Part shown: positions 3,619 through 64,000 of the stretch, in pieces
Numbering within the stretch: the first letter of the stretch is position 1
Layout: the number at the start of each line of letters is the position of its first letter
Assembly: GCA_947588355.1 (NCBI GenBank)
Contig: CANPYI010000002.1
Coordinates: 56,195-120,194 of the forward strand
Length of the DNA: 64,000 nucleotides
Source of the DNA: an uncultured Clostridia bacterium
GTDB taxonomy: Bacteria > Bacillota > Clostridia > Christensenellales > UBA1242
Direction: 5' to 3'
Program-made: the position numbers and the translations under genes
Notes under the pieces: generated by a model
Told to the model about the DNA's origin: nothing
Seen by the model: the letters and a program-made list of their open reading frames with translations, nothing else
The model's database searches: none

Positions 3619-3666
3619 TTGTCTGTAAGTGACAGAAAATTGTCGAGCATACTGTGGAAAGGTAGT

Positions 3667-18600: not shown

Positions 18601-21600
18601 GCCGTTTCCTATAATGAAATCTTGAATAATGAGCAGTTTACAGGGCGATACACTTTTGAAATTTCAGATATTTACGGTGATGGACAAATCATAATTTCTT
18701 CCGCTTTAAGACAATTCACAATATCAACTTCCGTGATATCTTACAACGAAGACCGCGAAAAAGAAGACAATCCACAAAACCAAGCATACATTCAAATTGG
18801 TGAACAAAATCTAAGTTCTGTTACGCAAGATTTTGGCACAGAAGTGACAATCGTGCTTCAAAATGCAGCAAGTTTCAAATTTGCAGGTTGGAGTAAAGAC
18901 GGGGAAACGGTTATTTCTGAAACAAACTTGGCTGAAGAAGGTTTGAGGCTTTTGCACGGAAACACTTGGAGTTACACTGTTGACAACGATACCACACTTT
19001 ATGCAATTTTTGCAGAAGGTCCGTACACGATATCTCTTGGCATGTTGGATTATGTTTTCTATATCACAAATGGCAAGAGCAATGTTGAAAATCAATTTGT
19101 TGCTCTTGAAAATGGACAATATTTTGAAAGTGACGGTCAAACAGAAATAACGGAAAGTTTCCAACTTGTTTATGGCGCGAACAAAGAAATTGTGGTCAAC
19201 ATTCCAACAGGCTATGTTTTCTACGGCTTAGGTTTCTTTGATATTGAAAACAAATTTGTTTTCCTTGGGCAGCCTTATTTGCGACCTGCACAAACACGAC
19301 AAGAAAGAGTTGTTGTCAACTCACTTGAATTCGGCACAACGTTTGTGGAAAGAATCTATATGGTTGTTGTTTCTCAACTGACAAGCATAAAAGTTTCAAG
19401 CAAAATTGATTTTGCCGGCAAATACGAAGATGACAAAGATGTCGGCTCAATTGAACTTGTCGGCTCTGATGGAACGTCAGTCAACAGTGCTGGCTGGATT
19501 GAAGGCACGCGACTACATTATCTTGCCGGTGACTTTTCAAATGGAAATGTGAAAGATGTACGCAATTTCAGTATTGTGGCTTACACGGGCGACACTGTTT
19601 ATCTTAAAGTCAACAATCCTCGTGCTGGATACAGAATAGGCTCGCTGCTTGTCAACAACGAAGAGTTTTTTGTTTTAAGTGGTCCAACACAAGGTGTTGA
19701 TAGTGTGATTTATCAAATTTCTGGGATTGTTGGCGGAATGAGTGGCCTTGAAATTACGGTGCTTTATGTACCAAATTTAAACACCATCAACCTCAAATTT
19801 GTTCAAGAAGGTCAAGACAGCAATGTTGCAGTTGGCGGAGGAATGTTCCAGAGCACCACTCAAGATGGAACAAAAATGTGGATAACGGGAAATGAAAGCA
19901 CACAATTGATTGTGACTGCTTACACTGATGTGTCATTCACTGTGCAAGCATACATTCGCGCAGGATTCTATGTCAACAAAGAAGATGTCGAAAACAATTT
20001 GGTTGTTTTGAGCCCTTCAAATATAGTAAGACTTTCCAGCGTTCAATACACTCCACTTTCTGTGGAACTTAGCGGCTTCACGGGAAGAATAAGTTTTGTT
20101 GTTGAAGGTTTTGCCGGAATAAATGACATAAACATCTTGCTTAAGTCTTCCAAATATACCGTCATGTTTATGGATAACGAAACCGTGCTTGCAACTGTAC
20201 GCAATGTGGCGTTCAACACCAGTCTGCAAGAAAGTTTGTCGCAACAAAACAGTCAAAACATAACTGCGGGCAATCTTGTGTATGTAAACGGCTATCTTGA
20301 CCTTGTCAGAACGCTTGAAAAACATCACTTCGAGGGCTACTTTACTTTCCAAAATGGTGCGGGCGTGAGATATGTTGATTCCACCGGCAAGGCAGTTTCG
20401 ACTTGGCAAGAAAGTGGATATGCATTCAATTCTTTGAAGAACAAGTTTGAATTGACATCAAACGCATTTGTTGACCAAGACGGAAATATGGTTGTGAAAC
20501 TTTATCTGTATATGTCCTTCCTTAAAACAAGACTGACATTCAACTTTCAACCAAGTGGCATAAATCTGACCGCACAAAACATGGTCACGGGCATCGATCC
20601 AACAAACTCTTGGTTTTACGAAGCGTCGCCAAATTATATCGAAGTTTCTTTCAACACGGATATATATATCACGGCGCCAGAAACCAATGGATACAAATTC
20701 TTTAAGTTTATCATCGCACAGAAAACATTTGACGGAACTTGGCTGACCGCGGTGACATCTTATCAGAGCCGTGTACCATGGTCCACAAACAACGTTGACC
20801 AAATCGTTGAAGTGAACATCGATGTTGTGTACTTTGCAAAAGTTGATGTTGATGTTGTTGGTGGCGATGGCACATACACCATTTCTCAGGACAACGACTC
20901 TGATTCTCAAGCCGATGCAATGATAAGTCAAGGTTATGTTTCAACGGAAAAACCATTCACAATCACAGCAAAACCAGAGGAAGGATATATCTTCAATCAA
21001 TGGCGCTATTTGGGGCAAGTTTCTTCAAATCCAACAATAAGTTTGACGATTTACTCGAATGTAACATTGACAATGAACCTTTCGGGTGTTGCGGCCACAT
21101 TAGATTTTTCAAAATATGATTTGGCAAAAGGACATATCGAGTCCATAACAATACACAGTAAATCCGGCAGAGAAAGAACAGAAACACTTGGAAGCGGAAA
21201 TGTTGGAAACTTCAACAGATATCCAAACAAATTGTTTGTGTCAGTGAATGTTGGTGACCAAATCACCTTTAAGGTGGCAACAAACACGAATGTTGGAGTA
21301 AGTTGGAATTTGGACAATGTGACATTTGCGAGATTTTCCGGAAATTATCAGTATTTTGTGTTTGAAGTGGGCAGTGCTTTGGCAAACAAGACCACAGCGG
21401 TGATTCCGGCATTCACAAACACACACAGAGCAATTTACATAAATAGTCAGTTTGACCAGGATTTGACCAGTGCCATAGATATGAATAATGTTGATTTTGC
21501 AGGACAAATTTTGTGTAATGGCAAACAAGTTGAATATCTTTTGGCAAAACGGGAAGATGCCGTTGAAATTGATTTACTCGCCAACGCGCGCTACGAAATA

Positions 21601-48256: not shown

Positions 48257-48286
48257 TTGACTTACACGTCGGATTTAGGTTATGAT
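48257..48286 (+). promoter_or_regulatory. Promoter of the 1,464-aa surface-protein gene
   Basis: TTGACT (48257-48262), an 18-bp spacer and TATGAT (48281-48286). This gives a leader of about 33 nt with AGGAG 7 nt before the ATG, the leadered type in contrast to several neighbours. Confidence 0.7.
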
Positions 48287-48325
48287 ACTTGTGTTATCAT
48301 ATTTCATACAATTAGGAGATTTGCT

Positions 48326-51300
48326 ATGAATCAAAATAAAAAACACTCTGTATTTTTTAGGGGGATTGTGATTGCAGTCGCTTTTCTTTTGGCTGTTTTG
48401 TGCTTTCCAATCAACGGGATTGTTGCACTTGCTTCAGACGGCGACGTTGATTATCATTTCATCACCATAGGAAACAGTAAAGAAAGCGTTCAAACAGAAG
48501 TTTTGAAGGGCGATACTTACACCATTCCAGTCGCATATATCGGAGGAAATACTGGTTGGAAAGTTGGCGATTCCGACCAAAATAATCAAAAACTTGCAAC
48601 TGAAGGAGAACAACAAGTAACACTTGTTTCTTCAAACATTTCTGTTTCTATTTTGGGCGAAGATGTAAGACTTAACGAAGATAACAAAAGTTTTAATTTT
48701 AAGGTCGAAAAAGAGGGCACTTATCAAATTACTTACTCTTACAACTATAAAATTGGTGAAAAAGGTGAGGAGCAAACAAACTCTTACAAACTTAATGTTG
48801 TCAGCAAATTGCCAAAAGCATCTGTAAATTTTGTTGACACTTCTATTCCATTGCCAAGTTCTATTGATCTTTCTCTTGCTCACAGCAAAGAAGACAAAAA
48901 CACATACATCGACATGAATATTCCACTTCCAGAGATTCATGACGATAAAGATGAAAAAATTGAAGGGGTTGCTTTCTACACAACAAAAACTCTTGCTGAG
49001 GCTGAAGCAAAAGTTGGACAAGAGGGTGGCGTTGCTGACAAATACGTTTTGATCACAGCAAACGGCGGACACAATGCCAAAGATGTTGAAGTGAGTGAGG
49101 AGAATGGAAGATTTTTCATCTCTGGCTCGGTTTTCTCAGATAAAGACTATCTTGCTGGGCTTTACACTATCCGTTACTCTTATTATGTAAGAAACGCAAG
49201 TGCTGACAATGGTAAAGGTGTTGCTCACTTTGTGACATCTGCATCAAAAACAACAACCGTTTTCACTGACGACGGAAAACACAATCATTACAAAAATTAT
49301 GATATTAAACTTGACCTTGACTCTGATTGGATTGACAACGGACAAACAGGTGTTGAAAGCAAACTGCCAAAAGCAATCGGCTTGACATCTGCTGACACAA
49401 CTCCTGCCAACGAACAAGTTGATGTTGCATACAACGTGAAAGTTTTCTTCAAAACAACTCGCGAAGGACAATACAACACAGAGATCAAAGATATCAAAGT
49501 GAATCCAGATGATAAAGACAGTGCTTTACTTTATGCCGATCAACTTAACGCAGACGGCACTTTGAAAGATCCTACAAAATTCACTCCGCTTCAAGATGGA
49601 TATTATTCATTCATATACACCATTCGTGACTATTATGGAAACGAACGTTCCAACTTGAATGACAACAAATATGCATATGAATTCAAAGGCGGAGACGGAA
49701 ACAACGGTGTAAAGGATCAAAAAGCACCAACTGCAATTGTTTATGACGCTTCTTCTTATGACGAAAATGATGAATATGTTGACGAGGCTTACAAAAGCAA
49801 GTCATATTCTGTGGCAAACGGTGTTGTTGTTTACGCAATTGGCATGACAGACAATGTTTCGAAATACAACACACCGGGCGTTGACATGTATCGTGAAATT
49901 ATGCTTGACGAAGAAGAAACAGTTTTGACGATAAAAGATTACGACAAATACAACCTCGTGTTCAACTATCGTGAAACTGGCGCAAACAGTGCATATGACA
50001 ATCTTATTACAAATGATTATAATATCAGAAAACAAATAAATGCTGAAGGCAAGCAAATCAAGAGCGACAAAGATATGCTTGATTGGCTGAAAGAAAAGAG
50101 ATATCTTATTGTTGTTGACAACAAAAATAGTGACGAAATTTACAAAACATTCAAAAGTGCATCGGTTTTTGGCGAATCTATTACAGATGGAAACACTCTT
50201 GTAAGTTGGCTGAAAACACAAACTCCTGAAGAAATTGCCAAACTTGGTTTTGCATATATCGACTCGGACAAAACATTCGGAAGCAACCAAAATGGTGATT
50301 TAGGAAATGACGACTATGTTATTCACTATGTTGTGAAAGATGCTGCAGGAAACACTTCCACTCACAGAACAGTTTCCATGACAATCGTTTCAACTTTGGT
50401 TGACAACGATGCTCCACAAGTTGTTTTCTCAACAGGTCTTAAAGATTCTTATCTTCCAAACACAACTTTGACTTTCAACGCTCCATCTTGGCAAAAAGAA
50501 TCATATGACAACAGAATGCAAATGCACACACTTTATCGTTACTTGTATGATGAAAGTGTAAGCACAGGAAAGTTTACTGGCGACAAAAAACTTGACGAAG
50601 TTTGGAAAGCAATTGACAAAATTAAAGACGACAACGGCGTGCTTTTGACTGAAAAATACAAGACTTATAATACTGATTCCACTGACGGCTACACCGAACT
50701 TACTGACACTGATGCTTCTTCTTACACTATTGATCTAAGTGAAGCCGGTGAAAAAGTTACGGGACTTCAAATTTTTGTTTATGTGTTTGATGATGCCGGA
50801 AATGTCGGAATTTACGCAAAAACCGTTACAATTTCAAGCGTGATAGACAGTTTCTCTCCATCTTTGCATGATGTTATTGACAATGAAACTGCTGCAACTT
50901 ACGAACAAGGCACAGAAATCGCTCTTCCAACTCTTGAATTTTACGATGACGCCGTTGGCTTTATGACCTATGACATTGCTATCGAATGCGAACGTGAAAC
51001 AGGATCATTGCCAATTCACTCAACAGGCTCACATCACGAAAGAAAAGTTGCAAACGGCACAATAGGAACTTACAAGGTTTATGGCGGAAGATTTGTTGCT
51101 TCTTATGAAGGAACTTATCATGTTACGATCAGTGTTTCGGACGGCAACAACAATACTATTGCATATTTCAAAACTTACAAAGTTGAACCACGTGTTATTA
51201 TTCAACCACCAGTTATCAATCCAAGTTTTGCAAAAAATCAAACTGTTGAACTTGACACTTTGACTGACGGAATTGAAATCCCAGTTCCTGTTGTAAATTA

Positions 51301-52720
51301 CGAAATTCCAAGAAGTGTGACATATGATGTTTACACTGCAGAAGATACAAAAACAAACTACACAGCAGGACATGATGGCTACAACAACACAGATTATGTT
51401 GTTCTTGGCGTAAACGAGAATAATCTTGCAACAAATTGGTCAGCAACATATGGCACTGAAAATGTCTTCCGTCCAACAAAAACCGGAACATACGATTTTG
51501 TGTTTACAGTTGATTTGATTGTTTACAATTACAAAACAATGAAATACCAAGAAATGACAGTGGAAGCAGATGAATCGACCGGAATGCCTACGTACAAGGA
51601 AGGCGGATATATAGAATACACAAACAAGGACAAAACTGCAAAAATTTACGCAGCAGATGACAATAGTGCATTCAAAGTTGTTTCGTCTGAAAAAACTTAC
51701 TTTGTCGTTAATGATGAAAATGGCTTTAAGATTTTTAAAGAAGGCGAAAGTGGATTAGAGGAATTTAACTCTAAATCAGTGGAAGATGGATGGAACGACT
51801 CAATCTTTGCTGCTGAGGGTGCAGAAGATGCTTTCAAAGAATTGAAGCACTACAAACTTGAAAGTGACGTTTATCGTGTTGTTGTTCAAGATTCAACTGC
51901 TCCGGAACTTATCGACTATGACTATCCAACAGCACTCACCAAAGATGCTGAAGGAAAAGTTGGGGCTTTGACAATTTATGGTATTCAAGTAAAGCCAAAC
52001 GCAACAGGAATCGATGATATTGACCGTGACAGATCTCAAATTGTTTTGTCTTGGACACTTGCTTCGGCAGGTTCAACAGGCTCTGTAACCGGACGTCATG
52101 TTTACTCTTTGAGCAACGGAAAGGACAACAATCCATTTGAAGACCACACATTTGATTCTTTCCCAGACAACAGCGATGGTATTTACAAAGTGACTTACAA
52201 CGTGTATGACACAAATGGAAATGCCGCAGATCCTGTTGTTTACGAAATCGCTGTCGGTGACAATATTGGCCCAGAAATGAGTTTTGAAGAGTTTGAAATT
52301 AAAGACTCTTACAAACTTAGCGACCTTTTGAAATCACCTTTGAAAGTTGATTTGAGTGCTATTGACGTTATTGACTTAGGTTCTGACGAGGCATTTGAAT
52401 TCCCTAGAAAAGCAACCTTGACAAACAAATCTACCGGCGAAGAAATCAAGCCTGATGAAGAGCTTTCAAAAGACGATCAACTTTTCTTCAACATAGACGA
52501 AGTTGGCACTTACTCTTTGGTTGTTGAAGTTACCGATGCCGTTGGCAACAAATCATCTCAAACATTCTCATTTGAGGTTACTGCGGAAACTCGTGATGGC
52601 ACAACAACATATCAAGTGATTGGCACAGTTTTGATTGTGATTTCCGTGCTTATCCTTGCAGGTGTGATCATCTACTTCATTGTGTCAAAAGTAAAACTTG
52701 ACAAAGAATTGAAGAAATAA
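48326..52720 (+). CDS. Large membrane-anchored surface protein with Ig-like D-x-A-G-N repeats
   Basis: 1,464 aa from ATG 48326; the track start at 48257 coincides with the promoter -35 and is rejected. A signal peptide occupies residues 1-36 (basic MNQNKKH, a hydrophobic core, then ALAS). The body is a series of Ig-like beta domains recognised by closing strands such as IHYVVKDAAGNTSTHR, YVFDDAGNVGIY, YNVYDTNGNAAD and VEVTDAVGNKSS, at least six copies. The C-terminus is a hydrophobic helix (VIGTVLIVISVLILAGVII) followed by KVKLDKELKK. No LPXTG motif is present. It is probably an extracellular adhesin or wall-spanning scaffold. It is convergent with the similar 2,800-aa gene. Confidence 0.9.
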   Translation: MNQNKKHSVFFRGIVIAVAFLLAVLCFPINGIVALASDGDVDYHFITIGNSKESVQTEVLKGDTYTIPVAYIGGNTGWKVGDSDQNNQKLATEGEQQVTLVSSNISVSILGEDVRLNEDNKSFNFKVEKEGTYQITYSYNYKIGEKGEEQTNSYKLNVVSKLPKASVNFVDTSIPLPSSIDLSLAHSKEDKNTYIDMNIPLPEIHDDKDEKIEGVAFYTTKTLAEAEAKVGQEGGVADKYVLITANGGHNAKDVEVSEENGRFFISGSVFSDKDYLAGLYTIRYSYYVRNASADNGKGVAHFVTSASKTTTVFTDDGKHNHYKNYDIKLDLDSDWIDNGQTGVESKLPKAIGLTSADTTPANEQVDVAYNVKVFFKTTREGQYNTEIKDIKVNPDDKDSALLYADQLNADGTLKDPTKFTPLQDGYYSFIYTIRDYYGNERSNLNDNKYAYEFKGGDGNNGVKDQKAPTAIVYDASSYDENDEYVDEAYKSKSYSVANGVVVYAIGMTDNVSKYNTPGVDMYREIMLDEEETVLTIKDYDKYNLVFNYRETGANSAYDNLITNDYNIRKQINAEGKQIKSDKDMLDWLKEKRYLIVVDNKNSDEIYKTFKSASVFGESITDGNTLVSWLKTQTPEEIAKLGFAYIDSDKTFGSNQNGDLGNDDYVIHYVVKDAAGNTSTHRTVSMTIVSTLVDNDAPQVVFSTGLKDSYLPNTTLTFNAPSWQKESYDNRMQMHTLYRYLYDESVSTGKFTGDKKLDEVWKAIDKIKDDNGVLLTEKYKTYNTDSTDGYTELTDTDASSYTIDLSEAGEKVTGLQIFVYVFDDAGNVGIYAKTVTISSVIDSFSPSLHDVIDNETAATYEQGTEIALPTLEFYDDAVGFMTYDIAIECERETGSLPIHSTGSHHERKVANGTIGTYKVYGGRFVASYEGTYHVTISVSDGNNNTIAYFKTYKVEPRVIIQPPVINPSFAKNQTVELDTLTDGIEIPVPVVNYEIPRSVTYDVYTAEDTKTNYTAGHDGYNNTDYVVLGVNENNLATNWSATYGTENVFRPTKTGTYDFVFTVDLIVYNYKTMKYQEMTVEADESTGMPTYKEGGYIEYTNKDKTAKIYAADDNSAFKVVSSEKTYFVVNDENGFKIFKEGESGLEEFNSKSVEDGWNDSIFAAEGAEDAFKELKHYKLESDVYRVVVQDSTAPELIDYDYPTALTKDAEGKVGALTIYGIQVKPNATGIDDIDRDRSQIVLSWTLASAGSTGSVTGRHVYSLSNGKDNNPFEDHTFDSFPDNSDGIYKVTYNVYDTNGNAADPVVYEIAVGDNIGPEMSFEEFEIKDSYKLSDLLKSPLKVDLSAIDVIDLGSDEAFEFPRKATLTNKSTGEEIKPDEELSKDDQLFFNIDEVGTYSLVVEVTDAVGNKSSQTFSFEVTAETRDGTTTYQVIGTVLIVISVLILAGVIIYFIVSKVKLDKELKK

Positions 52721-52839: not shown

Positions 52840-55800
52840 TTATTTTACAGAGATTCGTTTTCTCAGTTTTATGATTATGAATATGATTGCAACAAGCACA
52901 ACTGCGGAAATAACAATTGCGATTATCGAGGCTGCATTCATAGGTTCATTTCGCGTAACTTTGTAACTGAACAGCAAGTTGCCGCTTGGCGAAATAATCT
53001 GGATAAAGTACGTTCCCGTTGAACTTATTGACAAGGTCTGTCCGATTTCGGCACTTTGACTGTTGATATTTATTGTTGTGCCAATTCCGATATTGCCTTC
53101 ATCAAGCAATTTTGCAATTCTTAAAGTTGATTCTCCCATCTCCAAAAAGATGTTTCGTGGGTTGTATAGAATGGTGATTGTGCCGGTTGTGGAATCTCCT
53201 TGCTTTAGGGATATTTGCAGAGGAGCCGTTCCAGAATAAATCTTCACAACAAACGTAAAGGTTGAAATGTAGTCTCTTAGAAGACGATTGTTGCTGTTGA
53301 TGGTGATTGTGTATTCACCTTCGCCAGTGTTTTGATCCAGATAGGATATAGGCAGTTCTGTCATATAAAGTTGACCATTTATCAAAACTTTGCCCACATC
53401 AAGTGATTGTATAAGTTGCTCAGTTATGTCATTGCCATTTTTCAAAACATTTTCAACATAGTAGTTTGAATATTTGTTGTACACATATGAAATTTTGTAT
53501 TCATCGGAATTTATTATTGTAAATTGATAAGTTTCGCTGCGAAGTTCTTGATTGTTGTTTTGAGCCGAGAATTTTATTTCATAATATCCAGAATCCTGGA
53601 AGGTGAAACTTGTGCCACTCGTCGAAATTTCTTGAACAATTCCATTTCTTTTCACTTCTGCAAGTGCAGGATAGATCGAGTAGTATGCCGAAGTGTAAGT
53701 GTTTCGATCTATATTAAGTGTGACGGCGCCGTTGTAAACCGCTTGTTTTATTGGCAAACTTGTTTCTTGTTGTTGTGTAAGCGGATTGGTGTAGGTGATT
53801 GTGAAAGGCACATCTTTCAAAAATACAAATGTAAATTGCTCGTATTCATCATTTCCAACCTTAAACTTGTTTACATTTCCCGCAACATCGACAAATCTTA
53901 TGGTGTACATTCCGGAATTTGTCAAGTAGATGTAATTGAATGCACTTGTTGTGCCGTTGGTCAAAGTTCTTGAGCCGGAGTAAACTGTTGGATTAAGAAC
54001 GATTTGTCCGCCTTCCAAACCTGTGCTGTGAAGTGTGACTTCAATAGAAATCTCGTTTTCCGGCAAAGCATTATATTTTGACCATTGCAACTGAACTCTG
54101 TCAAGATTGTTGCCGTCTGGTATAATCAAATTTGCAGAATTTCTGTTTGCCAAGTTGTTGTTTGTGTCAATCACACCGTCGGTATTGTAAGTGTAGAATG
54201 TTGTTACAAAATTTGAAACATTTGGCACGTAGGTGACTATGAGATATGTTTCATAATTCGTTTGGCTGTCTTCTTTGCTGTAAACGCGATACTTTTCACT
54301 CTTGACATTGTTCTTTTCATATTCATGAACTTTTTCGTATGCAAGGTTTTGTTCGCTGTTTAGCATGATTTCAACACGATCGCCTTCGTTTACTATATAA
54401 TGGTTGGAGTACTGTGTGTTGTCTTCTTCTGCACGATATATTGTTCCGCTTTTTTGGACAACACTTCTTGTGCCGTTCGTAACTTTTTCAACCCAGTAAT
54501 ATGATGTAAGTGATGTCAAATTGAAGGAATAGATTTGAGAATTTGGCACGTCTTCAAAAACGTATTGTGCGTTGCCGTATTGATTTTGCAACTGTGTGTC
54601 ATACCAAATCTTCAATTGCCATGTTTCAGTTTCGCCCGAAACATTTTGAAGCCTTGATCCTGATGTCAATTCTTGCCAAACGTCTTCAGTGACTTGTTTT
54701 GCCCAAACTTTGACAGGCAAAAATGTTTCCGACCTGTTGAATTGAACTCTCAGTTGTGAGAAGTATCCCAATTCACCATTCAAAGAATTTGTAATTTGGT
54801 CGTTGACGATCTCGCCACGCGCGTTTAAAATTTTGTATTGACCTGCTGTGTTGACTTGAGGGTCAGAGTTTGGACGAAGGAGTTCGTCATACAACTTGAA
54901 TTGAATAGATTTGATAAACTTTTGTGTTGTTGCATCTGAAATATTGAGAACAAAATTCAAATTGTAACCCTGTGACTTGTCATTGACTTTGTAGGTGTTG
55001 ATTTGTGTTCCGTTGCTCCCATATGAGTGACCTTCGGAGGCATTTGTAAGATTGATTGTTTGTTTTGTTGTTGTGCCATCTACGTTTTGGACTATCACTT
55101 CTTTGGCCTCTACACTGTATTTGTTTGTGTTGAATGTGTATTGGAATCCGTCACGGACAATATAAATCAAATCTCCGTTTTCGTCGTAATAGGCGTACAC
55201 TTTGTCTTCCTCTTTTTCGGAGCCGATTTCACGTGAGATGATTGACTCGTGATACAAGTGAACTTCGCTGTATGTTTGGCCGTAGTTGTCTGTAAATTCA
55301 TACAAAATTCGGTCGTTTGAGGATATTGTTGCAAGGTTTGGATTTATTTCAAAAACAAGTTGGTCGCCGGAAATCATAACGCGTATTGTTTCGCTTTCAT
55401 TCCAAGAAGAAGTTGTGCTTGTAAAGTTTTTCCAATCCTGTGCGTAGCCAAGTTTGTTTTGAACAGGCTCACCATTTTCGTCAGCATAGATAGCGTTGCC
55501 GTTTACACTGATTTTCATGCTTACAACAAACGGGGTGTTGCTTGCCGTTGTTGTGTTTTGAAGTTGTGCGTCAGAAACATTTGAAAAACTGATAAACTCT
55601 CGATTTGCTGTGTTTGACATTGTGTGATTGAGTCCGATGTTTCGGATGTTTACATAAAAGTTTGTGTCAGTTTGATTAAGCCTGTTTGTGATGGTGATGC
55701 AATGCTTGTCGCTTAAACTTTGAGTTCCATCTATCAAATCTTTTATGGCAATGGTCTGTGGAGTACTTTGTCCAACAAACACATATGCGTAGCCCTTTTG

Positions 55801-58800
55801 CCAAGGTGACAGCATAAGTGTGCGCGTTGTTGAAACAGGCTGGCCATTTTGACGGGAGTATGTTCTGACCGTAAATGGTGACCAAACATCTCCAAAGAAG
55901 TCTATGTTTTGCAATTTGAAGCCCATGCGCGCATAGATGTTGTTTATCGCACCGCTATGACTTTGCACTGCAAACATATCATCCGAAGTGTAGTTGACAA
56001 CGTTTTGTTCATCTTGGTCGGTGGTGTAGGTGATAAGATTGCGTCCGCTTTGTCTTTGGTCGGTGACAAATATTGTGTAGATTGCCATATTTCTTGCGCG
56101 GTCTATTTCCACAATCTCATAATAAGCACCAACTTCCAACTCGCCAATATCGTTTATGTTGTTGTAATTTGACTCGTAGAAACCACTTGGAGAAGTTTCT
56201 TGTTGAGCGGAAGAAGAATATTTCACACCTTCAGCAAAACGATTTATATATGTTGAAACATCGCCAGTGTTTTGTCTTAAGGTGTTTATGAAATCTTTTG
56301 TGACCACATATGAATAGTATGCAAAAATGTTTCCACTGTCAGAGCCTTGACTAAGGTTGTAACTTCGGTTTGATTTGTCTGTGCTTGGTGTGTAATTTGC
56401 CTTTTGATAAGAACGCAAGACCGACCTGTTGAACAAATTGCTGTCAATTTTTGAGTTTTGCAAAGATTTGTCCACAAGATCTTCCACGTTTTTGTCAGGG
56501 GCAGTCAAGTCAACAATGATTCGTTTTGTTACAAAATGATACAAGTTGTTTCCGTTTGAGTCCACAACCAAATCGTGATTTTCGTAGTACATTGTGATGT
56601 CCACAAAACCACCATCTTGGTAAACTCCATCAAGTTTTTGCAAATCGATTGTGCCAAGATAGTTGCCGTTGGATTGCAATTGCGGAATGTTGTTCCAAAT
56701 ATTTCGATGCTCATCAGACGGGTCATTTAAGTTGAAATCAAAACCTTTTGTGTTTGATGCTGTGCTGAAATGAATCTTTGTCACATCTATGTTTGCCATA
56801 AATTGATTGTCGCTGTGTTGCCAAATAACATCAAGCAAAGATTGATTTGTATAGTATGTTTCTTTGATTTGTGAGTCTGGACTTAAGGTGGATTGCAAAG
56901 GTCTTTTGCCTATTGTGCTTGAAACAGAAGTTTCAACTGTAAAATCAGGCTCTGTTTGAATGATGTCAAATTGGAAGGTTATTGATTGCTGATAATTGTT
57001 TTCGGCTAAGCCTTCACCAAACATACCTTGATAAACCGTCACAAAATAACTTCCTGCCTCTGTCAACTGACCAAACTCTGTTTCACCGTTTTCATAACTA
57101 TAAAATTTTAAAAATCCGTTTTCATCTGCTTGAACATTTTCAAGGGTTGGATTCTTGCTGTTTGAAGTCACTGCGATAGGCGATGAATCCACACTTCCTC
57201 GGCGCAATTCTGCATAAAGTGCATATTCCTTGATCAAATTGTCTTTTTTGAAAAAGTTCATACTGTCGGAGTTGTCTTCTGCAAAATTGTATTTTACATC
57301 AAACTCATAGCCGTTGCCTGTTTCCGTCTTTTCTACGTAAGTTGTGTATTTGTATTGAGGAATGTAGATATTTACTGGAAGTTTGTTTGTTGTAAGTCTA
57401 GCCTGAACATCTCCGTTGTTGTAGAACGAACCGTTGTTGGTGTTGCCCGCTTCACTGTTTGGAAATGTCACAACAAGGTCTGTGGTTTTTCCGGTGTCGT
57501 ACATAGCAACAAAAATATCTCCACCGACCAAACTTTCCGAATGCTCACCAATCGGGGTTTGACTTGAAATCACTTCGTTGCGGTCTACAATCAAAACATA
57601 TTGGCGTTTATAATAGTCTTTTTCATTGTATGTGTTGTCGTTTTCAAGGTTGTATGTACGCGTGATAACATATTTGCCGGGTGTTGTAATATTGTTTTCA
57701 AGTTTGATATCAATTGGAATTTTTGGATCTTGTGTTAAGTCATCTGCGTTATATTTGTACAATTCGATATTTGATTCTGTAGGATTGTCTGCAAGTTTTC
57801 TGTAATAATATGTTACGCCGTTCACATCTTTGCTGCCCTGTTCGTATGCGTAAAAATCCATTGTAATTGATTCAACTTGTATTTTGTTTGTTTTTAAAGT
57901 TGGAACAAATGTTACTTGAAGGGCTTTGCTCATGCGAGTAGGACTTAAGTAGGTTGTCAGTTGTTCAGTTTTTTGATGTTTTTCGTCTTGAACGTCAGAA
58001 AGTTGTTCAACTTCGGTGTTGTTTGATGCAAGATATCTGATTTCATCACCTTCGCTGTACTGAATGAAGAATTGCGAATCATCAAAACTTACAATTATTG
58101 TCTGTCTTGCACTGAAGTAATTTGTATATTGAATGAGTGCATCTTCGTTGTAAAGGACGTCCATCTTGCTGTTGGAGGCATCGCGTATCATAACTGTGTA
58201 GGTGATTTCCTTGTCGCAATTCAATTCTTGAGAGTTGACATTTTGTCTTTCAACATATCCTTTGTCAGGGTCGTTGACATCTGTCATGTGAGTCACATTG
58301 TTGATAGGCACTGCCAAATAAAGTCCGCTGTAATTTGAGATTAAACGGCTCACTCCATCTCTATCTTCTATTTCATCATCTCTTACTGTTATTTCTTTGA
58401 TAAACTCAGGTTGATACAATTTCTGATAAACAGTCTTAAAGATTTCTTTTGATTTTGTGCCATTTTTGTCGGTGAAAACTGTGCTTATCACACCGGAAAA
58501 GTCTATATCAGAATCTTCTCCCAAAGTGTAATCTTTAAAGATGTTTTCAAGACCGTTGATGTAAATTACTTTGTATTTTCCCCAGTAAAGTGTGGATTTT
58601 TCGTGAATAAATTGTGAAGTGCTTGGAAGGGTGTATTTTGTGTCATAAAGAGCAAATATTGGATTGGAATCATCAATTACAAACAAATCATATGAGTGGT
58701 TGCCCGCTTCGTCATAAACATCAAGCACATAAAGTCCAGGGTCAGTGAAAAGCGATTGCTCTGACAAAGTGTCTTTTCCGGTGGTGTTTTCAAGATATGG

Positions 58801-61242
58801 AAGCCAATCATGAGTGTTGTCAGCAAGATTTAAAACTCTGTTTACAGGAATGTAGGAATTGTCATCAGTTCCGGACTTAATCATTTGCTCAAGAATGGAG
58901 TTGATACTCTCATCTGAAGTTGGATAATATTGCCCGTCAGCACCGCTCAAAAGTGGAAAATAGTGATAATAAGCATAGGTTTTTGCTTTGCTATCTTTTT
59001 CTTTCCAAGAAAGTGCCACATATTGATTTGTCGAAAAGTTTGTCAAAACTGAATGATTTTTGTAGGAGGAGGCGGTTGCTTTTTCAAAATTTCGCTTTGT
59101 GATATCAAAATTTGTGTCCTTGTCTATCGTAAACACAGTCTCTCGGCGATATTTTTTGCCTGTTTTGATATTCAAGATTGAACGGTCTTTTTTGATTTCG
59201 TTTGTGTAATACAAACGTATGGTATAGCAAGCCGATTCAGTCAAAGTTGCTGTGTTGCTTTGACTTTTGTCAAGTTCTGCCAACGAAATTCCGTTTTCGC
59301 CACCAAAGTCGGCTCTGTAAACAAAATCTTTCTTGTCCTCAAAACCTTTGTTTGGTGCAAAATCATAAGCATAGATTTGCACGGTGACATCTTTGTTGTA
59401 TTTGTCCAACTTTGTGGTGTCGTTTATCACAACGTTTTGATTGACAAAATCGTTGCTGTTTATCTTTTTGTTGGAAGCGGTGATTGTGATATCTTTCAGT
59501 TCTTTCAAAATCTCAAAGTAGAAAACTTGATAGAAAACGTTGTTCAATGTGCCCTGTGTGTTTTCGTTTTCGCGATAAGCATTGTAGTTGTAGGCGATAA
59601 TATAGATGTATTTTCCAGGAGTGTTTTCAGTTTGACCAGTGAATGATGAAGAATACAGATTTTCGCCATTCAGACTGCTGCCGGTAGTTTCAAAATCGTT
59701 GATTTGTGCCGTTGTGTAAATCCAACTTGCCACATTTGCCAAAGTTGCATTGGCAGTAAACTGAATTGGAGGTTGATTGGTCTGTACAGGGGTTTTGCCG
59801 TTCAAGAATTGCAAAATTTTTGTCGGAGTGAATGTTGTATTGTTGTTTTGAGAGTAATCAGAATTCGAATTCAAAAATTGGCTAGTTATGTCGGCGCCAT
59901 CAATAAATGTCCCGTCAACAAATTCGCCACTTTGGTCAGTCACATTGCCTTTGTCATCGCTCAATTTGTAATCTTTCAGTTCTTTAAGTGGCAAAGAAGA
60001 TGTGGAGGTTTGCTCTGCATCAAAGTAGGTGTAGTTTGCTTGATAGCCAAACATATGTACTTCGATTCTTTTTGTCACTGCACTCAAACCATTCAAATCG
60101 TACTTTTGAACAGTTTGCTCAGCGCCAAAATCCACAACTTTGATTGCTTTCAAAGTCAGTGTGTAAGCGCCAACATCTGTGAAATACAATCTTGCCATAC
60201 TTTTTTCTGTTGAATAGACAAGTTTTACGATGTCAGATGATGACTCTGTCAAAACAATCGGTGCTTCACCATTTTGCTCGTCAGTGTTGTATTTGATTTG
60301 AGCCGTTTTTGGACTTTCGCCTGTCAAATCTTTGATTATGTCAATCTCGTATCTTGTGTAGTCAAAATCGATATGAGGAATTTTGTCGGTATTTCCTTTT
60401 GAAGAAAAATTGCTGTAAAGGGCATAAGAAAGTGTGGCACGTGTGTCATTAAATTCTACATTTTGGTCAAAAGCGTCATAAGTTATGGTTGGCTTGCTGT
60501 TTTCTTGCTGATACTTGTCCTTGTCGACAACATAAAAACTGTATGTAAGAAGGGGACTTCCATCTTCTTGCCCATTGAAGTTTTGGCTTGTAAACTGAAA
60601 ATTGTTTTCCTCTTGTTCTTCTCCATTTGTGCATGTGTGACGTGTGAACTGCAAAGTCAAAGTGTAAAGCCCTTCCACAACTTGACCGTTTTCCACAACA
60701 GACAACTTGTCCTCTGCCGCCGATTCTTCGGCGCACAATGTCATGCTGAATTCCTCAACGGGTTGTGACTCATTTCCAAAACGATTTTCGGTTGGTCGGG
60801 CATATTTGTTGCTTGTCAGACTTTTGTTTACTCCGTTGATGGTCAGTCTTGGTTGAATATTGCTGAAAAAGTAGAAAATTGATTTGTTGTCAAGGTCGGG
60901 ATAATATACATAATTGTATTTGTTATCTTCAACACCCTCGCTGCCTCCATTGAAATCAAAGGAAAGTTTTAAGATGTTTTCGGAATCGCTTGAAAGCATA
61001 AAAATGTCAGATGCAATAAGAGAGTTGTAGTCAGGTGTTTCGGATTCTGAGTTTTCATATTCTTCTCGTGCAAAGTATGGATGATTTGAAACTGAATTGT
61101 TGTCAACTGTTTGCGACTGAACATTCAGTGCGTTTGCGACTTTGTTTGTCCGCGTTGGAAAAATAAGAAATCCTGCGCCAAGAAAAACTAGCGCAAAAAA
61201 TATGCAAAAAATATTTTTAAACAAGAAATTTTTTCTTTCCAT
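52840..61242 (-). CDS. Giant (2,800-aa) membrane-anchored surface protein with Ig-like repeats
   Basis: The track starts at 61377, but AGAGAGG lies 7-8 nt before the ATG at 61242 and a promoter lies upstream, giving about 2,800 aa. The signal peptide is MERKNFLFKNIFCIFFALVF and a hydrophobic run to about residue 30. The body consists of repeated beta domains closing in patterns such as VLDVYDEAGNHSYDLFV, TVMIRDASNSKMD, VEIDRARNMAIY and IRFVDVAGNVNKF. This is the same D-x-A-x-N type as in the 1,464-aa protein. The C-terminus is a transmembrane helix (AASIIAIVISAVVLVAIIFI) and KLRKRISVK. No LPXTG and no catalytic domain were recognised. The gene has its own promoter (16-bp spacer). Confidence 0.9.
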   Translation of the reverse strand: MERKNFLFKNIFCIFFALVFLGAGFLIFPTRTNKVANALNVQSQTVDNNSVSNHPYFAREEYENSESETPDYNSLIASDIFMLSSDSENILKLSFDFNGGSEGVEDNKYNYVYYPDLDNKSIFYFFSNIQPRLTINGVNKSLTSNKYARPTENRFGNESQPVEEFSMTLCAEESAAEDKLSVVENGQVVEGLYTLTLQFTRHTCTNGEEQEENNFQFTSQNFNGQEDGSPLLTYSFYVVDKDKYQQENSKPTITYDAFDQNVEFNDTRATLSYALYSNFSSKGNTDKIPHIDFDYTRYEIDIIKDLTGESPKTAQIKYNTDEQNGEAPIVLTESSSDIVKLVYSTEKSMARLYFTDVGAYTLTLKAIKVVDFGAEQTVQKYDLNGLSAVTKRIEVHMFGYQANYTYFDAEQTSTSSLPLKELKDYKLSDDKGNVTDQSGEFVDGTFIDGADITSQFLNSNSDYSQNNNTTFTPTKILQFLNGKTPVQTNQPPIQFTANATLANVASWIYTTAQINDFETTGSSLNGENLYSSSFTGQTENTPGKYIYIIAYNYNAYRENENTQGTLNNVFYQVFYFEILKELKDITITASNKKINSNDFVNQNVVINDTTKLDKYNKDVTVQIYAYDFAPNKGFEDKKDFVYRADFGGENGISLAELDKSQSNTATLTESACYTIRLYYTNEIKKDRSILNIKTGKKYRRETVFTIDKDTNFDITKRNFEKATASSYKNHSVLTNFSTNQYVALSWKEKDSKAKTYAYYHYFPLLSGADGQYYPTSDESINSILEQMIKSGTDDNSYIPVNRVLNLADNTHDWLPYLENTTGKDTLSEQSLFTDPGLYVLDVYDEAGNHSYDLFVIDDSNPIFALYDTKYTLPSTSQFIHEKSTLYWGKYKVIYINGLENIFKDYTLGEDSDIDFSGVISTVFTDKNGTKSKEIFKTVYQKLYQPEFIKEITVRDDEIEDRDGVSRLISNYSGLYLAVPINNVTHMTDVNDPDKGYVERQNVNSQELNCDKEITYTVMIRDASNSKMDVLYNEDALIQYTNYFSARQTIIVSFDDSQFFIQYSEGDEIRYLASNNTEVEQLSDVQDEKHQKTEQLTTYLSPTRMSKALQVTFVPTLKTNKIQVESITMDFYAYEQGSKDVNGVTYYYRKLADNPTESNIELYKYNADDLTQDPKIPIDIKLENNITTPGKYVITRTYNLENDNTYNEKDYYKRQYVLIVDRNEVISSQTPIGEHSESLVGGDIFVAMYDTGKTTDLVVTFPNSEAGNTNNGSFYNNGDVQARLTTNKLPVNIYIPQYKYTTYVEKTETGNGYEFDVKYNFAEDNSDSMNFFKKDNLIKEYALYAELRRGSVDSSPIAVTSNSKNPTLENVQADENGFLKFYSYENGETEFGQLTEAGSYFVTVYQGMFGEGLAENNYQQSITFQFDIIQTEPDFTVETSVSSTIGKRPLQSTLSPDSQIKETYYTNQSLLDVIWQHSDNQFMANIDVTKIHFSTASNTKGFDFNLNDPSDEHRNIWNNIPQLQSNGNYLGTIDLQKLDGVYQDGGFVDITMYYENHDLVVDSNGNNLYHFVTKRIIVDLTAPDKNVEDLVDKSLQNSKIDSNLFNRSVLRSYQKANYTPSTDKSNRSYNLSQGSDSGNIFAYYSYVVTKDFINTLRQNTGDVSTYINRFAEGVKYSSSAQQETSPSGFYESNYNNINDIGELEVGAYYEIVEIDRARNMAIYTIFVTDQRQSGRNLITYTTDQDEQNVVNYTSDDMFAVQSHSGAINNIYARMGFKLQNIDFFGDVWSPFTVRTYSRQNGQPVSTTRTLMLSPWQKGYAYVFVGQSTPQTIAIKDLIDGTQSLSDKHCITITNRLNQTDTNFYVNIRNIGLNHTMSNTANREFISFSNVSDAQLQNTTTASNTPFVVSMKISVNGNAIYADENGEPVQNKLGYAQDWKNFTSTTSSWNESETIRVMISGDQLVFEINPNLATISSNDRILYEFTDNYGQTYSEVHLYHESIISREIGSEKEEDKVYAYYDENGDLIYIVRDGFQYTFNTNKYSVEAKEVIVQNVDGTTTKQTINLTNASEGHSYGSNGTQINTYKVNDKSQGYNLNFVLNISDATTQKFIKSIQFKLYDELLRPNSDPQVNTAGQYKILNARGEIVNDQITNSLNGELGYFSQLRVQFNRSETFLPVKVWAKQVTEDVWQELTSGSRLQNVSGETETWQLKIWYDTQLQNQYGNAQYVFEDVPNSQIYSFNLTSLTSYYWVEKVTNGTRSVVQKSGTIYRAEEDNTQYSNHYIVNEGDRVEIMLNSEQNLAYEKVHEYEKNNVKSEKYRVYSKEDSQTNYETYLIVTYVPNVSNFVTTFYTYNTDGVIDTNNNLANRNSANLIIPDGNNLDRVQLQWSKYNALPENEISIEVTLHSTGLEGGQIVLNPTVYSGSRTLTNGTTSAFNYIYLTNSGMYTIRFVDVAGNVNKFKVGNDEYEQFTFVFLKDVPFTITYTNPLTQQQETSLPIKQAVYNGAVTLNIDRNTYTSAYYSIYPALAEVKRNGIVQEISTSGTSFTFQDSGYYEIKFSAQNNNQELRSETYQFTIINSDEYKISYVYNKYSNYYVENVLKNGNDITEQLIQSLDVGKVLINGQLYMTELPISYLDQNTGEGEYTITINSNNRLLRDYISTFTFVVKIYSGTAPLQISLKQGDSTTGTITILYNPRNIFLEMGESTLRIAKLLDEGNIGIGTTININSQSAEIGQTLSISSTGTYFIQIISPSGNLLFSYKVTRNEPMNAASIIAIVISAVVLVAIIFIIIKLRKRISVK

Positions 61243-61270
61243 AAAAATACCTCTCTTAAAACTCGAAATC

Positions 61271-61298
61271 ATTTTAGCACAAAGAAAAATTATTTCAA
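61271..61298 (-). promoter_or_regulatory. Promoter of the 2,800-aa surface-protein gene
   Basis: On the minus strand: TTGAAA (61293-61298), a 16-bp spacer with extended TGc, and TAAAAT (61271-61276). The leader is about 22 nt. Confidence 0.6.
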
Positions 61299-61324
61299 AG
61301 TAAAATAAGATTATTTTTATTAAA

Positions 61325-61353
61325 TTTATTATATATAAAATATACAATATAAT
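61325..61353 (+). promoter_or_regulatory. Weak promoter upstream of the KwaA-like gene
   Basis: TTTATT (61325-61330), a 17-bp spacer and consensus TATAAT (61348-61353). The start would be near 61360, about 150 nt before the next ATG, with a terminator-like hairpin in between. Confidence 0.4.
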
Positions 61354-61431
61354 ACGCGGGTCAGATTTAAAGCACACTTAAAAAACAATTTAAAAATAAA
61401 ATAAAATTAAATTAAAAAATAAAAAATATTA

Positions 61432-61512: not shown

Positions 61513-62082
61513 ATGGAATTTTTCAAAAATTTACTTTTGTATATAAGTGCCTTTGTGCCAATGTATGTTTTGGTGTTTGTCAAACTTGTGGTTGAGATGC
61601 TTAATCACAATTTGACTTTTGATGTGCTAAACACCATAAATTTTGTCACTTTGCTTTTGCTGATAATGGCGGGTGTGGGCGGCCTTTTTTGGAACATCAA
61701 GTACTCTGGCGACAAATCGGTGAAAATTGAAATCGTGTCCAAGCAAAACATAACCGACAAGCACTTCTTAGGTTATTTTTCTCTTTTCGTCTTTTTTGCC
61801 ATACCGCTTGACCTTTCGCTCGTCAGTGCCTATTGCGTGTACGTGCTTGTGCTTATAATGATTGGAATTGTGTACATCAACAACGCACTTTATTACATCA
61901 ATCCACTTCTCAATCTTTTGGGATACAATTTTTATGACATAGAATACAAAGTTGAAGGCTCTGACGAGGTGAAACAAGCAAAGATTTTCTTTAAAGGTAA
62001 CTTGACAATACAAAATCAGCATTATTGGGCAAACATAAAAAATCAAAACTTTTGCTTTATAGATGAAAAACATAAAAAATAG
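61513..62082 (+). CDS. Four-helix membrane protein, tentatively KwaA-like (Kiwa defence family)
   Basis: 189 aa. Hydrophobic segments lie at residues 5-25, 40-62, 88-108 and 110-130, then a soluble C-terminal third. The segment ALYYINPLLNLLGYNFYDIEYKV and the overall layout resemble KwaA, the membrane component of the two-gene Kiwa anti-phage system. I make this match from memory of the family, without a search. The partner gene kwaB (DUF4868) is not adjacent. No Shine-Dalgarno sequence precedes the ATG, and the upstream 130 bp is extremely AT-rich. The gene converges with a SLOG-domain gene, and two HTH regulators lie beyond. Confidence 0.5.
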   Translation: MEFFKNLLLYISAFVPMYVLVFVKLVVEMLNHNLTFDVLNTINFVTLLLLIMAGVGGLFWNIKYSGDKSVKIEIVSKQNITDKHFLGYFSLFVFFAIPLDLSLVSAYCVYVLVLIMIGIVYINNALYYINPLLNLLGYNFYDIEYKVEGSDEVKQAKIFFKGNLTIQNQHYWANIKNQNFCFIDEKHKK

Positions 62083-62102
62083 TTGTATCTTTATATATAT
62101 AC

Positions 62103-62648
62103 TTATATATTGTCCAATTTTTCTTTGCCAAACATGTTTATGATGTGCTTTTTCTTTTGTTTGGCATATTTGTAGGCAATTGCCGTTCCACTTTTGGGTT
62201 GATACATCGACCACCACTTTGAGTCATGAAACTTTCTTTCAGGCGGCAAATAGTTTTCATCAAAGTAGAAAACACAAAAGTGGCTCATGTCAACGAGTGC
62301 TTGATTACGTTCCACATAACTTGCCTTTCCGGCAGTAAAAACATTTTTGTGTGTGATTTCTTCGTCAAAAGTACGATAAACCTTTTTCCACTCTTCCTTT
62401 TCGCTATTCAAGATGCAGCACTCACTTTTGCAGGTGAGACAAACCTTTTTTATGATTGGATACTGTTTTTGAATGTCGCAAACAATATCATAGCACATAT
62501 TGTCAAACTTACTTCGACTGCCAAACGCAAAAGCTCTGACGTTTTCCTCCTCCACAAGCAGCAGAACAACACGCCTTGTCGCCAAAACAAGTTCATCGGT
62601 CTTTTCAACATTTCTGTGACCAATAAAACAACAAACTTTGCTTTCCAT
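62103..62648 (-). CDS. SLOG-domain protein (YpsA/DUF1273-like)
   Basis: 181 aa. The N-terminus CCFIGHRNVEKTDEL is the nucleotide-binding start of the SLOG (SMF/DprA-LOG) Rossmann-like fold, and KSGTAIAYKYAKQKKKHIINM near the C-terminus matches the conserved S-G-T-A-x-A-x-x-Y-A-x-x-x-x-K pattern. SLOG proteins bind or process nucleotides and are often found in stress or defence loci. Cys residues are unusually frequent (CLTCKSECCILN). AGGAGA lies 6 nt before the ATG. A consensus promoter and a perfect 10-bp inverted repeat at the start point suggest tight repression, probably by one of the divergent HTH proteins. Confidence 0.8.
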   Translation of the reverse strand: MESKVCCFIGHRNVEKTDELVLATRRVVLLLVEEENVRAFAFGSRSKFDNMCYDIVCDIQKQYPIIKKVCLTCKSECCILNSEKEEWKKVYRTFDEEITHKNVFTAGKASYVERNQALVDMSHFCVFYFDENYLPPERKFHDSKWWSMYQPKSGTAIAYKYAKQKKKHIINMFGKEKLDNI

Positions 62649-62660
62649 AATTTTCTCCTA

Positions 62661-62686
62661 TATAAGTGCAGAGCATTGCACTTATA
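62661..62686 (-). promoter_or_regulatory. Operator-like perfect inverted repeat at the SLOG gene start point
   Basis: TATAAGTGCA (62661-62670) and TGCACTTATA (62677-62686) are perfect inverted 10-mers with a 6-nt centre. On the minus strand they run from the end of the -10 box, over the predicted start, to just before the ribosome binding site. A related half-site TATAAGGGCA lies at 62716-62725. Confidence 0.65.
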
Positions 62687-62714
62687 TTTTAATAATTTAA
62701 TTTTACAATGTCAA
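62686..62714 (-). promoter_or_regulatory. Promoter of the SLOG gene
   Basis: On the minus strand: TTGACA (62709-62714), a 17-bp spacer and TAAAAT (62686-62691). The inverted repeat begins inside the -10 box. Confidence 0.7.
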
Positions 62715-62771
62715 ATATAAGGGCAATATATTTACCGTAATTTTAATGCACAACATAAAATGGAGGAAAGT

Positions 62772-63014
62772 ATGGATTTAAATAAAGCGTTCGCTATGAG
62801 ATTGAGCAAGTTGTTACATGAAAAGCACATTTCAAAATACAGATTGGAAAAAGAAACGGGGATAACACACTCTGCTTTGCGATATATTTTCAATGAAGTC
62901 AATAAAGATGTTTATTTTTCAACGATAGTGAAAGTTTGTATCGCTCTCGACATTTCTTTGGAAGAATTTTTCAACGACGATATATTCAAATTGGAAAATC
63001 TGAAAGTAAAATAA
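62772..63014 (+). CDS. XRE-family HTH regulator, first of a tandem pair
   Basis: 80 aa from ATG 62772 (GGAGG ends 5 nt before it; the ATG at 62760 in the track overlaps that site). FAMRLSKLLHEKHISKYRLEKETGITHSALRYIFNEV is a Cro/C1-type helix-turn-helix, followed by the usual TIVKVCIALDISLEEFF C-terminal helix. There is no extra domain. It is divergent from the SLOG gene, with operator-like repeats in the shared region, so it may repress that gene or itself. The next gene encodes a protein of identical length and about 30 per cent similar sequence. Confidence 0.88.
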   Translation: MDLNKAFAMRLSKLLHEKHISKYRLEKETGITHSALRYIFNEVNKDVYFSTIVKVCIALDISLEEFFNDDIFKLENLKVK

Positions 63015-63023
63015 AGGTAATTT

Positions 63024-63266
63024 ATGGTTTTAGACGAAGCAATTAGAAAAAGAATCGGCGAAATCTTGGACGAAAATAACACAACGCTTACAGCACTTTG
63101 CTTAAATTCAAATTTGACACCTTCCACAGTTTTTGATTTTATGTACGGGAAAAGTAAAAGTCCAAAAATTATCACCATAAAAAAGATTTGTTTGGGTGCA
63201 AATATCACTCTTTCCGAATTTTTTGCTCGTGACTATTTTAATGATTCGGAAGAAGTTTATAAATAG
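63024..63266 (+). CDS. XRE-family HTH regulator, second of a tandem pair
   Basis: 80 aa, starting 9 nt after the first HTH gene with AAAGGTAA upstream. RKRIGEILDENNTTLTALCLNSNLTPSTVFDFMYGKS is the helix-turn-helix, and TIKKICLGANITLSEFF matches the C-terminal helix of its neighbour. Equal length and parallel layout suggest an old duplication that has diverged. The recognition helices (THSALRYIF versus TPSTVFDFM) differ, so the two probably bind different sites or form a heterodimer. A hairpin terminator follows, and then the 23S rRNA promoter. Confidence 0.86.
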   Translation: MVLDEAIRKRIGEILDENNTTLTALCLNSNLTPSTVFDFMYGKSKSPKIITIKKICLGANITLSEFFARDYFNDSEEVYK

Positions 63267-63760: not shown

Positions 63761-64000
63761 GATAAAGCTACAAAGAGCATATAGGGGATGCCTTGGCACT
63801 TGGCGCCGAAGAAGGACGTGATAAGCTGCGATAAGCCACGGTGAGGTGCACATAACCTGTGACCCGTGGATTTCCGAATGTGGAAACACGCACTGTTAAT
63901 ACGGTGGCATCATTGCATGAATACATAGTGCAATGAGGGGAACCCGCTGAACTGAAACATCTAAGTAAGCGGAGGAAAAGAAAGTAAACAAACGATTGTG
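63761..64000 (+). rRNA. rrl: 5' end of 23S ribosomal RNA
   Basis: Conserved 23S segments are readable: GGATGCCTTGGCAC (63786 on), GAAGGACGTGATAAGCTGCGATAAG, GATTTCCGAATG, and GAACTGAAACATCTAAGTA near the window end. By alignment to the Escherichia coli 5' end, the mature start is about 63761 (+/-10). The gene runs past the end of the window. It is preceded by its own promoter and an HTH gene rather than by 16S rRNA and a spacer tRNA. Confidence 0.95.

What the first reader, a model, noticed from the sequence alone, without database searches (positions are those of the whole stretch)
61513..63266. Accessory islet: KwaA-like protein, SLOG protein and two HTH regulators beside 23S rRNA
Four genes without housekeeping roles lie between a giant surface protein and the rRNA. 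A Kiwa-type membrane sensor without KwaB, a nucleotide-binding SLOG protein and dual HTH repressors resemble a compact defence or stress module in an unfamiliar combination. The site next to an rRNA gene is a common insertion point.
Basis: inference. Interest (0 to 1): 0.62.

Follow-up and report, generated by a model that had tools for sequence, protein, structure and literature searches.

The report
Solo KwaA core gene; SLOG–repressor cassette
The supposed four-gene defence islet is two unrelated things side by side: a membrane protein built like the sensor of the Kiwa phage-defence system but kept, without its partner, as an inherited core gene across most of a gut-bacterial genus, and a separate small gene cassette in which repressor-like proteins sit head-to-head with a nucleotide-binding (SLOG) protein.

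Summary
61513-62082 is a full-length KwaA homologue: PADLOC 1.6e-16, and the predicted fold matches KwaA in the KwaA-KwaB complex at TM 0.79. 62103-62648 has the YpsA/SLOG fold. The two small ORFs are HTH_26 proteins. The "compact defence module" reading fails. The KwaA-like gene is single-copy in 67 of 72 genomes of the genus, lies mostly among core genes or beside a giant surface protein, and forms one clade. KwaB is absent from all 71 genus genomes searched, whereas the same search finds KwaB touching KwaA in 5 of 6 other Clostridia that have KwaA. It is a fixed, KwaB-less KwaA, not an accessory Kiwa part. The SLOG gene with its divergent HTH gene(s) is a separate recurrent cassette. An HTH gene faces SLOG in 27 of 28 assessable genus loci, against 2 of 500 background genes; only 3 of 57 kwaA loci have SLOG nearby, in three arrangements. 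In four genomes (three sites) the SLOG promoter is followed at once by a conserved inverted repeat, unique in this genome, suggesting that the HTH proteins repress SLOG. What KwaA senses and what SLOG does remain inference. Interest 0.45.

The parts
61513..62082 (+). solo KwaA-family membrane protein (189 aa, four predicted membrane helices, small C-terminal beta domain); genus core gene
   Evidence: KwaA matches; fold, TM 0.79 to 9mrx_A; 67/72 genus genomes; 21 invariant columns in 57 orthologues
62103..62648 (-). SLOG/YpsA-fold protein (181 aa), effector candidate of the cassette
   Evidence: YpsA 2nx2, TM 0.68
62660..62687 (.). perfect 11-bp inverted repeat ATATAAGTGCA-N6-TGCACTTATAT, candidate operator just downstream of the SLOG -10
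   Evidence: one site in the whole genome; conserved in four genomes at three sites
62686..62714 (-). SLOG promoter TTGACA-17-TAAAAT (11/12); TTGACA-17-TATAAT (12/12) in three related loci
62713..62727 (+). third, lone half-site AAATATAAGGGCAAT
62760..63014 (+). HTH_26 Cro/C1-type protein, likely autorepressor (69-81% identical to HTHs beside matching operators)
63024..63266 (+). second, tandem HTH_26 protein (29% identical to the first)

Best explanation
The interval holds two independent units. (1) A solo KwaA. Shown: it has the KwaA fold, is inherited as a near-universal single-copy gene of the genus, and has no KwaB. Inferred: it forms a membrane tetramer like Kiwa KwaA, sits in the inner membrane with its C-terminal beta domain in the cytoplasm, and has been kept as a constitutive membrane-state sensor or scaffold acting through another cytoplasmic partner, not as a Kiwa defence system. 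(2) A SLOG-HTH cassette. Shown: SLOG and one or more HTH_26-type genes are divergently paired across the genus, and the SLOG promoter carries a conserved inverted repeat just after its -10. Inferred: HTH dimers bind this repeat and keep SLOG off; a signal, possibly a nucleotide or ADP-ribose derivative, relieves repression; SLOG then binds or processes a nucleotide and slows growth or division, as overproduced YpsA does in Bacillus subtilis. It would work like a tightly repressed stress, conflict or toxin-like switch.
For: KwaA identity. Fixation: 57/61 genus genomes; 18 of 42 genera of the family against 6 of 284 genomes outside the genus in the class sample. Monophyly 95/90 against Kiwa KwaA of other Clostridia. 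Distances correlate with gyrase (Mantel p 0.001, rho about 0.3). KwaB: 0/71 with 5/6 positive controls. Neighbours are core genes. SLOG-HTH pairing: 27/28 genus loci, background 2/500. Promoter and operator conserved at three separate sites, single in the genome. YpsA overproduction blocks division in B. subtilis (PMC6459960). KwaA forms membrane tetramers that carry KwaB (PMC12904381).
Against: No experiment. KwaA's partner is unknown and may be a diverged, unlinked KwaB. A few near-complete genus genomes lack it (G035 95%, G101 99% complete), so it is not strictly essential. The correlation with gyrase distances is modest. SLOG here lacks the glycine of the YpsA GxD/E motif (K47), so its activity is uncertain. 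Outside the genus only about 11 of 26 assessable SLOG loci have a divergent HTH. The operator is shown only for one HTH subgroup.
Confidence: 0.6

Rival explanations
1. The four genes are one defence or stress module: membrane KwaA senses phage, SLOG processes a nucleotide signal, the HTHs repress the set.
For: All four adjoin here. SLOG is near kwaA in 3 of 57 kwaA loci, more than random placement would give (rough estimate about 0.1-0.3 expected).
Against: In 54 of 57 loci kwaA has no SLOG nearby, and nearly all SLOG-HTH loci have no kwaA. The three adjacent cases differ in orientation and SLOG subtype. The operator lies between SLOG and HTH, not at kwaA.
Confidence: 0.05
2. The solo KwaA is still an anti-phage protein, working with an unrecognised unlinked or non-homologous effector: a solo or split Kiwa.
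For: Full KwaA fold and motifs kept. Kiwa KwaA is the infection sensor (PMC12904381).
Against: Core, single-copy, slowly evolving, among housekeeping genes, absent from the phage and viral collections, with only weak hits to E. coli Kiwa plasmids. In Kiwa it is KwaB that has anti-phage activity without its partner (PMC11514479).
Confidence: 0.2
3. The SLOG-HTH cassette is simply a mobile or selfish addiction-like pair (toxin-antitoxin) with no signalling role.
For: Multi-copy, patchy, unrelated loci, divergent repressor, decayed copies such as L047 with in-frame stops.
Against: SLOG is not a known TA toxin family. The HTH proteins are ordinary Cro/C1 domains with no evident toxin-binding part. 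No transposase or integrase was noted beside it.
Confidence: 0.25
4. KwaA is an ancient general membrane family from which Kiwa recruited its sensor; the genus keeps the original function.
For: The genus group has short branches while Kiwa KwaAs are very long.
Against: Absent from other sampled families of the order; only 6 of 284 other class genomes have KwaA, and 5 of those with KwaB.
Confidence: 0.15

Closest known systems
Kiwa (KwaA-KwaB) anti-phage system
   Same: KwaA fold over the full length (TM 0.79 to 9mrx_A); shared YxNPxL-x-L-x-G-xxxY motif seen in the alignment
   Different: no KwaB in the genus, core single-copy inheritance, not in a defence neighbourhood, under the NCBIfam KwaA cut-off
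YpsA (B. subtilis SLOG protein; DUF1273)
   Same: best fold match 2nx2 (TM 0.68), similar size
   Different: Pfam YpsA score under cut-off, GxD glycine replaced by K47, GGT replaced by SGT, paired with HTH repressors instead of GpsB
Thoeris ThsA SLOG sensor
   Same: related SLOG fold (7uxs_A, TM 0.42)
   Different: no SIR2 domain, no ThsB; stand-alone SLOG under a repressor
Nucleotide-centric conflict systems with SLOG (Burroughs et al. 2015; phage SLOG-HTH fusions in PMC9503650)
   Same: SLOG linked to HTH transcription control
   Different: here two divergent genes with a conserved operator, not a fusion

Membership tests
Kiwa system | KwaA homologue with the KwaA fold | tested here: met
Kiwa system | adjacent or at least encoded KwaB | tested here: not met
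   PF16162 0/71 genus genomes, NF041623 0/21 (no control rang); PF16162 positive controls 5/6
Kiwa system | KwaA above the curated NCBIfam equivalog cut-off (100 bits) | tested here: not met
   61.7 bits; KwaB-paired KwaA of the class sample also fall under it, so the cut-off is strict
Kiwa system | sporadic, accessory distribution in defence contexts | tested here: not met
   67/72 genus genomes, core neighbours
Kiwa system | protects against phage | not testable with these tools
   needs phage challenge
YpsA/SLOG superfamily | SLOG Rossmannoid fold | tested here: met
   2nx2 E 1e-8, TM 0.68
YpsA/SLOG superfamily | YpsA-clade GxD/E motif | tested here: inconclusive
   D49 kept, glycine replaced by K47; canonical GFD in L056, L059, L060
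Toxin-antitoxin system | toxic effector neutralised by its partner | not testable with these tools
   only gene pairing and operator logic seen
Autoregulated divergent HTH operon | regulator divergent from target with a shared conserved operator | tested here: met
   binding itself not tested

The most novel reading that the evidence does not exclude
A phage-defence sensor (KwaA) has been domesticated into a KwaB-less core membrane protein in a large part of a family of reduced-genome gut Clostridia, and, independently, SLOG plus HTH genes form an undescribed repressor-controlled nucleotide-signalling or toxin-like cassette with a dedicated operator.
Probability: 0.4. Interest if true: 0.6.

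Novelty: new variant of a known kind. Interest (0 to 1): 0.45.

Why it matters
How KwaA senses infection is unknown (PMC12904381). A lineage that keeps KwaA without KwaB offers a natural experiment: residues conserved here (N-I/T-T-D-x-H-F-L-G-Y-F and YINPLLNxLGYNFY) would mark functions of KwaA not tied to KwaB. It also warns that a KwaA hit alone is not evidence of Kiwa. The SLOG-HTH cassette gives a small, testable circuit for the poorly understood YpsA-like SLOG proteins: a strong promoter, a defined operator and a predicted repressor.

Tried and rejected
One four-gene module: rejected on co-occurrence. KwaA as phage- or plasmid-borne cargo: no match in IMG/VR or phages, only weak (27% identity) hits to E. 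coli plasmids, most with an annotated KwaA, although two PHROG families of unknown function resemble it. SLOG on phages or plasmids: none found. PADLOC match for SLOG or the HTHs: none. A defence hotspot between kwaA and 23S: the cargo there is variable but mostly housekeeping or lipoprotein-like. A conserved kwaA partner among neighbours: the DUF898 gene follows kwaA in only 7 genomes and the GtrA-like gene lies near it in 24. Literature search for a solo KwaA in the held library found nothing relevant.

Full report
What is there. The four ORFs exist as described between a 2845-aa surface protein gene on the minus strand and the start of a 23S rRNA gene at 63761. The genome is a 0.93-Mb assembly in 15 contigs, and its contig ends inside the 23S gene. 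Named relatives are gut metagenome genomes labelled uncultured Clostridia, Christensenella sp. and Candidatus Caccopulliclostridium.

The membrane protein is a KwaA. Twelve PADLOC KwaA models match it, best 1.6e-16 over residues 3-178. NCBIfam KwaA gives 7.8e-17 but 61.7 bits against a cut-off of 100. The only PDB sequence matches are Kiwa KwaA chains. A model built on 57 orthologues (pLDDT 79) matches KwaA from the KwaA-KwaB complex, 9mrx, at TM 0.79; the seven hits below E 0.001 are all KwaA, and everything after them is noise.

It is not an accessory Kiwa component. It occurs in 57 of 61 genomes of the genus and, with later samples, in 67 of 72, nearly always once. Within the family 18 of 42 sampled genera have it. 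In the class sample only 6 of 284 genomes outside the genus have KwaA, close to the published 1.8% for Kiwa (quoted in PMC11514479). KwaB (PF16162) is found in 0 of 71 genus genomes. The same search finds KwaB next to KwaA in 5 of the 6 other-class genomes, where the neighbours include what look like a type I restriction system or an integrase (read by eye). The genus copies form one group (95/90) apart from the Kiwa copies, with far shorter branches (the Kiwa branches are so long that their exact placement is unsure). KwaA distances follow gyrase distances only modestly (rho about 0.3, Mantel p 0.001). Neighbours are of three kinds: divergent from the giant surface protein, often 1.6-3.2 kb before 23S; between a membrane protein gene and a GtrA-like gene before gyrB-gyrA; or after rplK-rplA. 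Twenty-one alignment columns are invariant in 57 orthologues.

What it may do. In Kiwa, KwaA forms inner-membrane tetramers that hold KwaB at phage injection sites, and how KwaA senses infection is unknown (PMC12904381); KwaB has anti-phage activity of its own (PMC11514479). A KwaA kept for so long without KwaB most likely has a cellular role at the membrane, with another partner or alone. This is inference; a split defence role is not excluded.

SLOG and HTH are a second, separate unit. The SLOG protein has the YpsA fold (2nx2, TM 0.68) though Pfam YpsA scores only 16.3 bits. Relatives are patchy in the genus (38 of 71 genomes, often more than one copy) and common in the class (65 of 196 genomes). 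In 27 of 28 assessable genus loci an HTH gene faces SLOG from the opposite strand, usually within about 230 bp, sometimes as a tandem of two or more; among 500 other genes near kwaA only 2 have such a neighbour. Outside the genus the pairing is seen in about 11 of 26 assessable loci (my count). This genome has a second SLOG-HTH pair at G000:C1. SLOG lies near kwaA in only 3 of 57 loci (G000, G048, G010), with different orientation and SLOG subtype each time. That is somewhat more than random placement would give, perhaps because kwaA borders a variable interval; it stays unexplained.

Control of the cassette. Between SLOG and HTH lies a perfect 11-bp inverted repeat at 62660-62687. It is the only such site in the genome at up to 2 mismatches. 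Related loci in G022, G034 and G035 keep it at the same place (one arm mismatch in G022 and two in G034), with a related third half-site, inside intergenic DNA of 79% mean column identity. G034 and G035 share flanking genes, so these are three separate genomic sites in all. In all four the SLOG promoter reads TTGACA-17-TATAAT or one letter off, and the repeat begins directly after the -10. The HTH proteins of these loci are 69-81% identical to the window's first HTH, the SLOG proteins only 39-56%. The simplest reading is that HTH dimers repress SLOG, and perhaps themselves, through this site.

What SLOG may do. YpsA overproduction in B. subtilis blocks cell division and depends on a GxD/E motif (PMC6459960). 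YpsA-like SLOG domains are proposed to sense or process ADP-ribose derivatives in conflict systems (PMC9503650). Here the D is kept (D49) and the glycine is not (K47). A repressed, growth-modulating nucleotide-binding protein is the best guess.

Verdict. Observation confirmed; interpretation partly supported. The module claim falls. What remains is a KwaA without KwaB fixed in a lineage, and a SLOG-HTH cassette with a dedicated operator. Both are variants of known kinds.

Noticed in passing
3619-22236 (+), 48257-52720 (+), 52840-61377 (-): Three surface-type giant proteins of 6205, 1487 and 2845 aa with N-terminal hydrophobic segments and C-terminal membrane anchors, in a 0.93-Mb genome; the 6205-aa gene alone is about 2% of it.
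   Followed up: no
63761-64000 and loci such as L066, L067, L070, L103: No 16S rRNA or tRNA gene in the window; no 16S directly before 23S here, so 23S looks unlinked from 16S, perhaps genus-wide.
   Followed up: no
G000:C1:87-923 (L121): Second SLOG-HTH divergent pair in the same genome, of another SLOG subtype and without the window's operator.
   Followed up: partly
L139 (G255) 5944-6471: A KwaA homologue with no PF16162 KwaB in its genome, near genes that look like ABC transporters: another possible solo KwaA outside the genus.
   Followed up: partly
plasmid hits H1-H7 (NZ_CP023342.1 and others): Mobilizable E. coli plasmids, most about 5.5 kb and including some from strain Nissle 1917, carry a kwaA (annotated in five of seven) 27% identical to this protein.
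   Followed up: no
L115, L116, gene right after kwaA: A 209-aa protein with a weak, sub-threshold DUF4041 match (22 bits), the domain used by the SNIPE defence nuclease.
   Followed up: no
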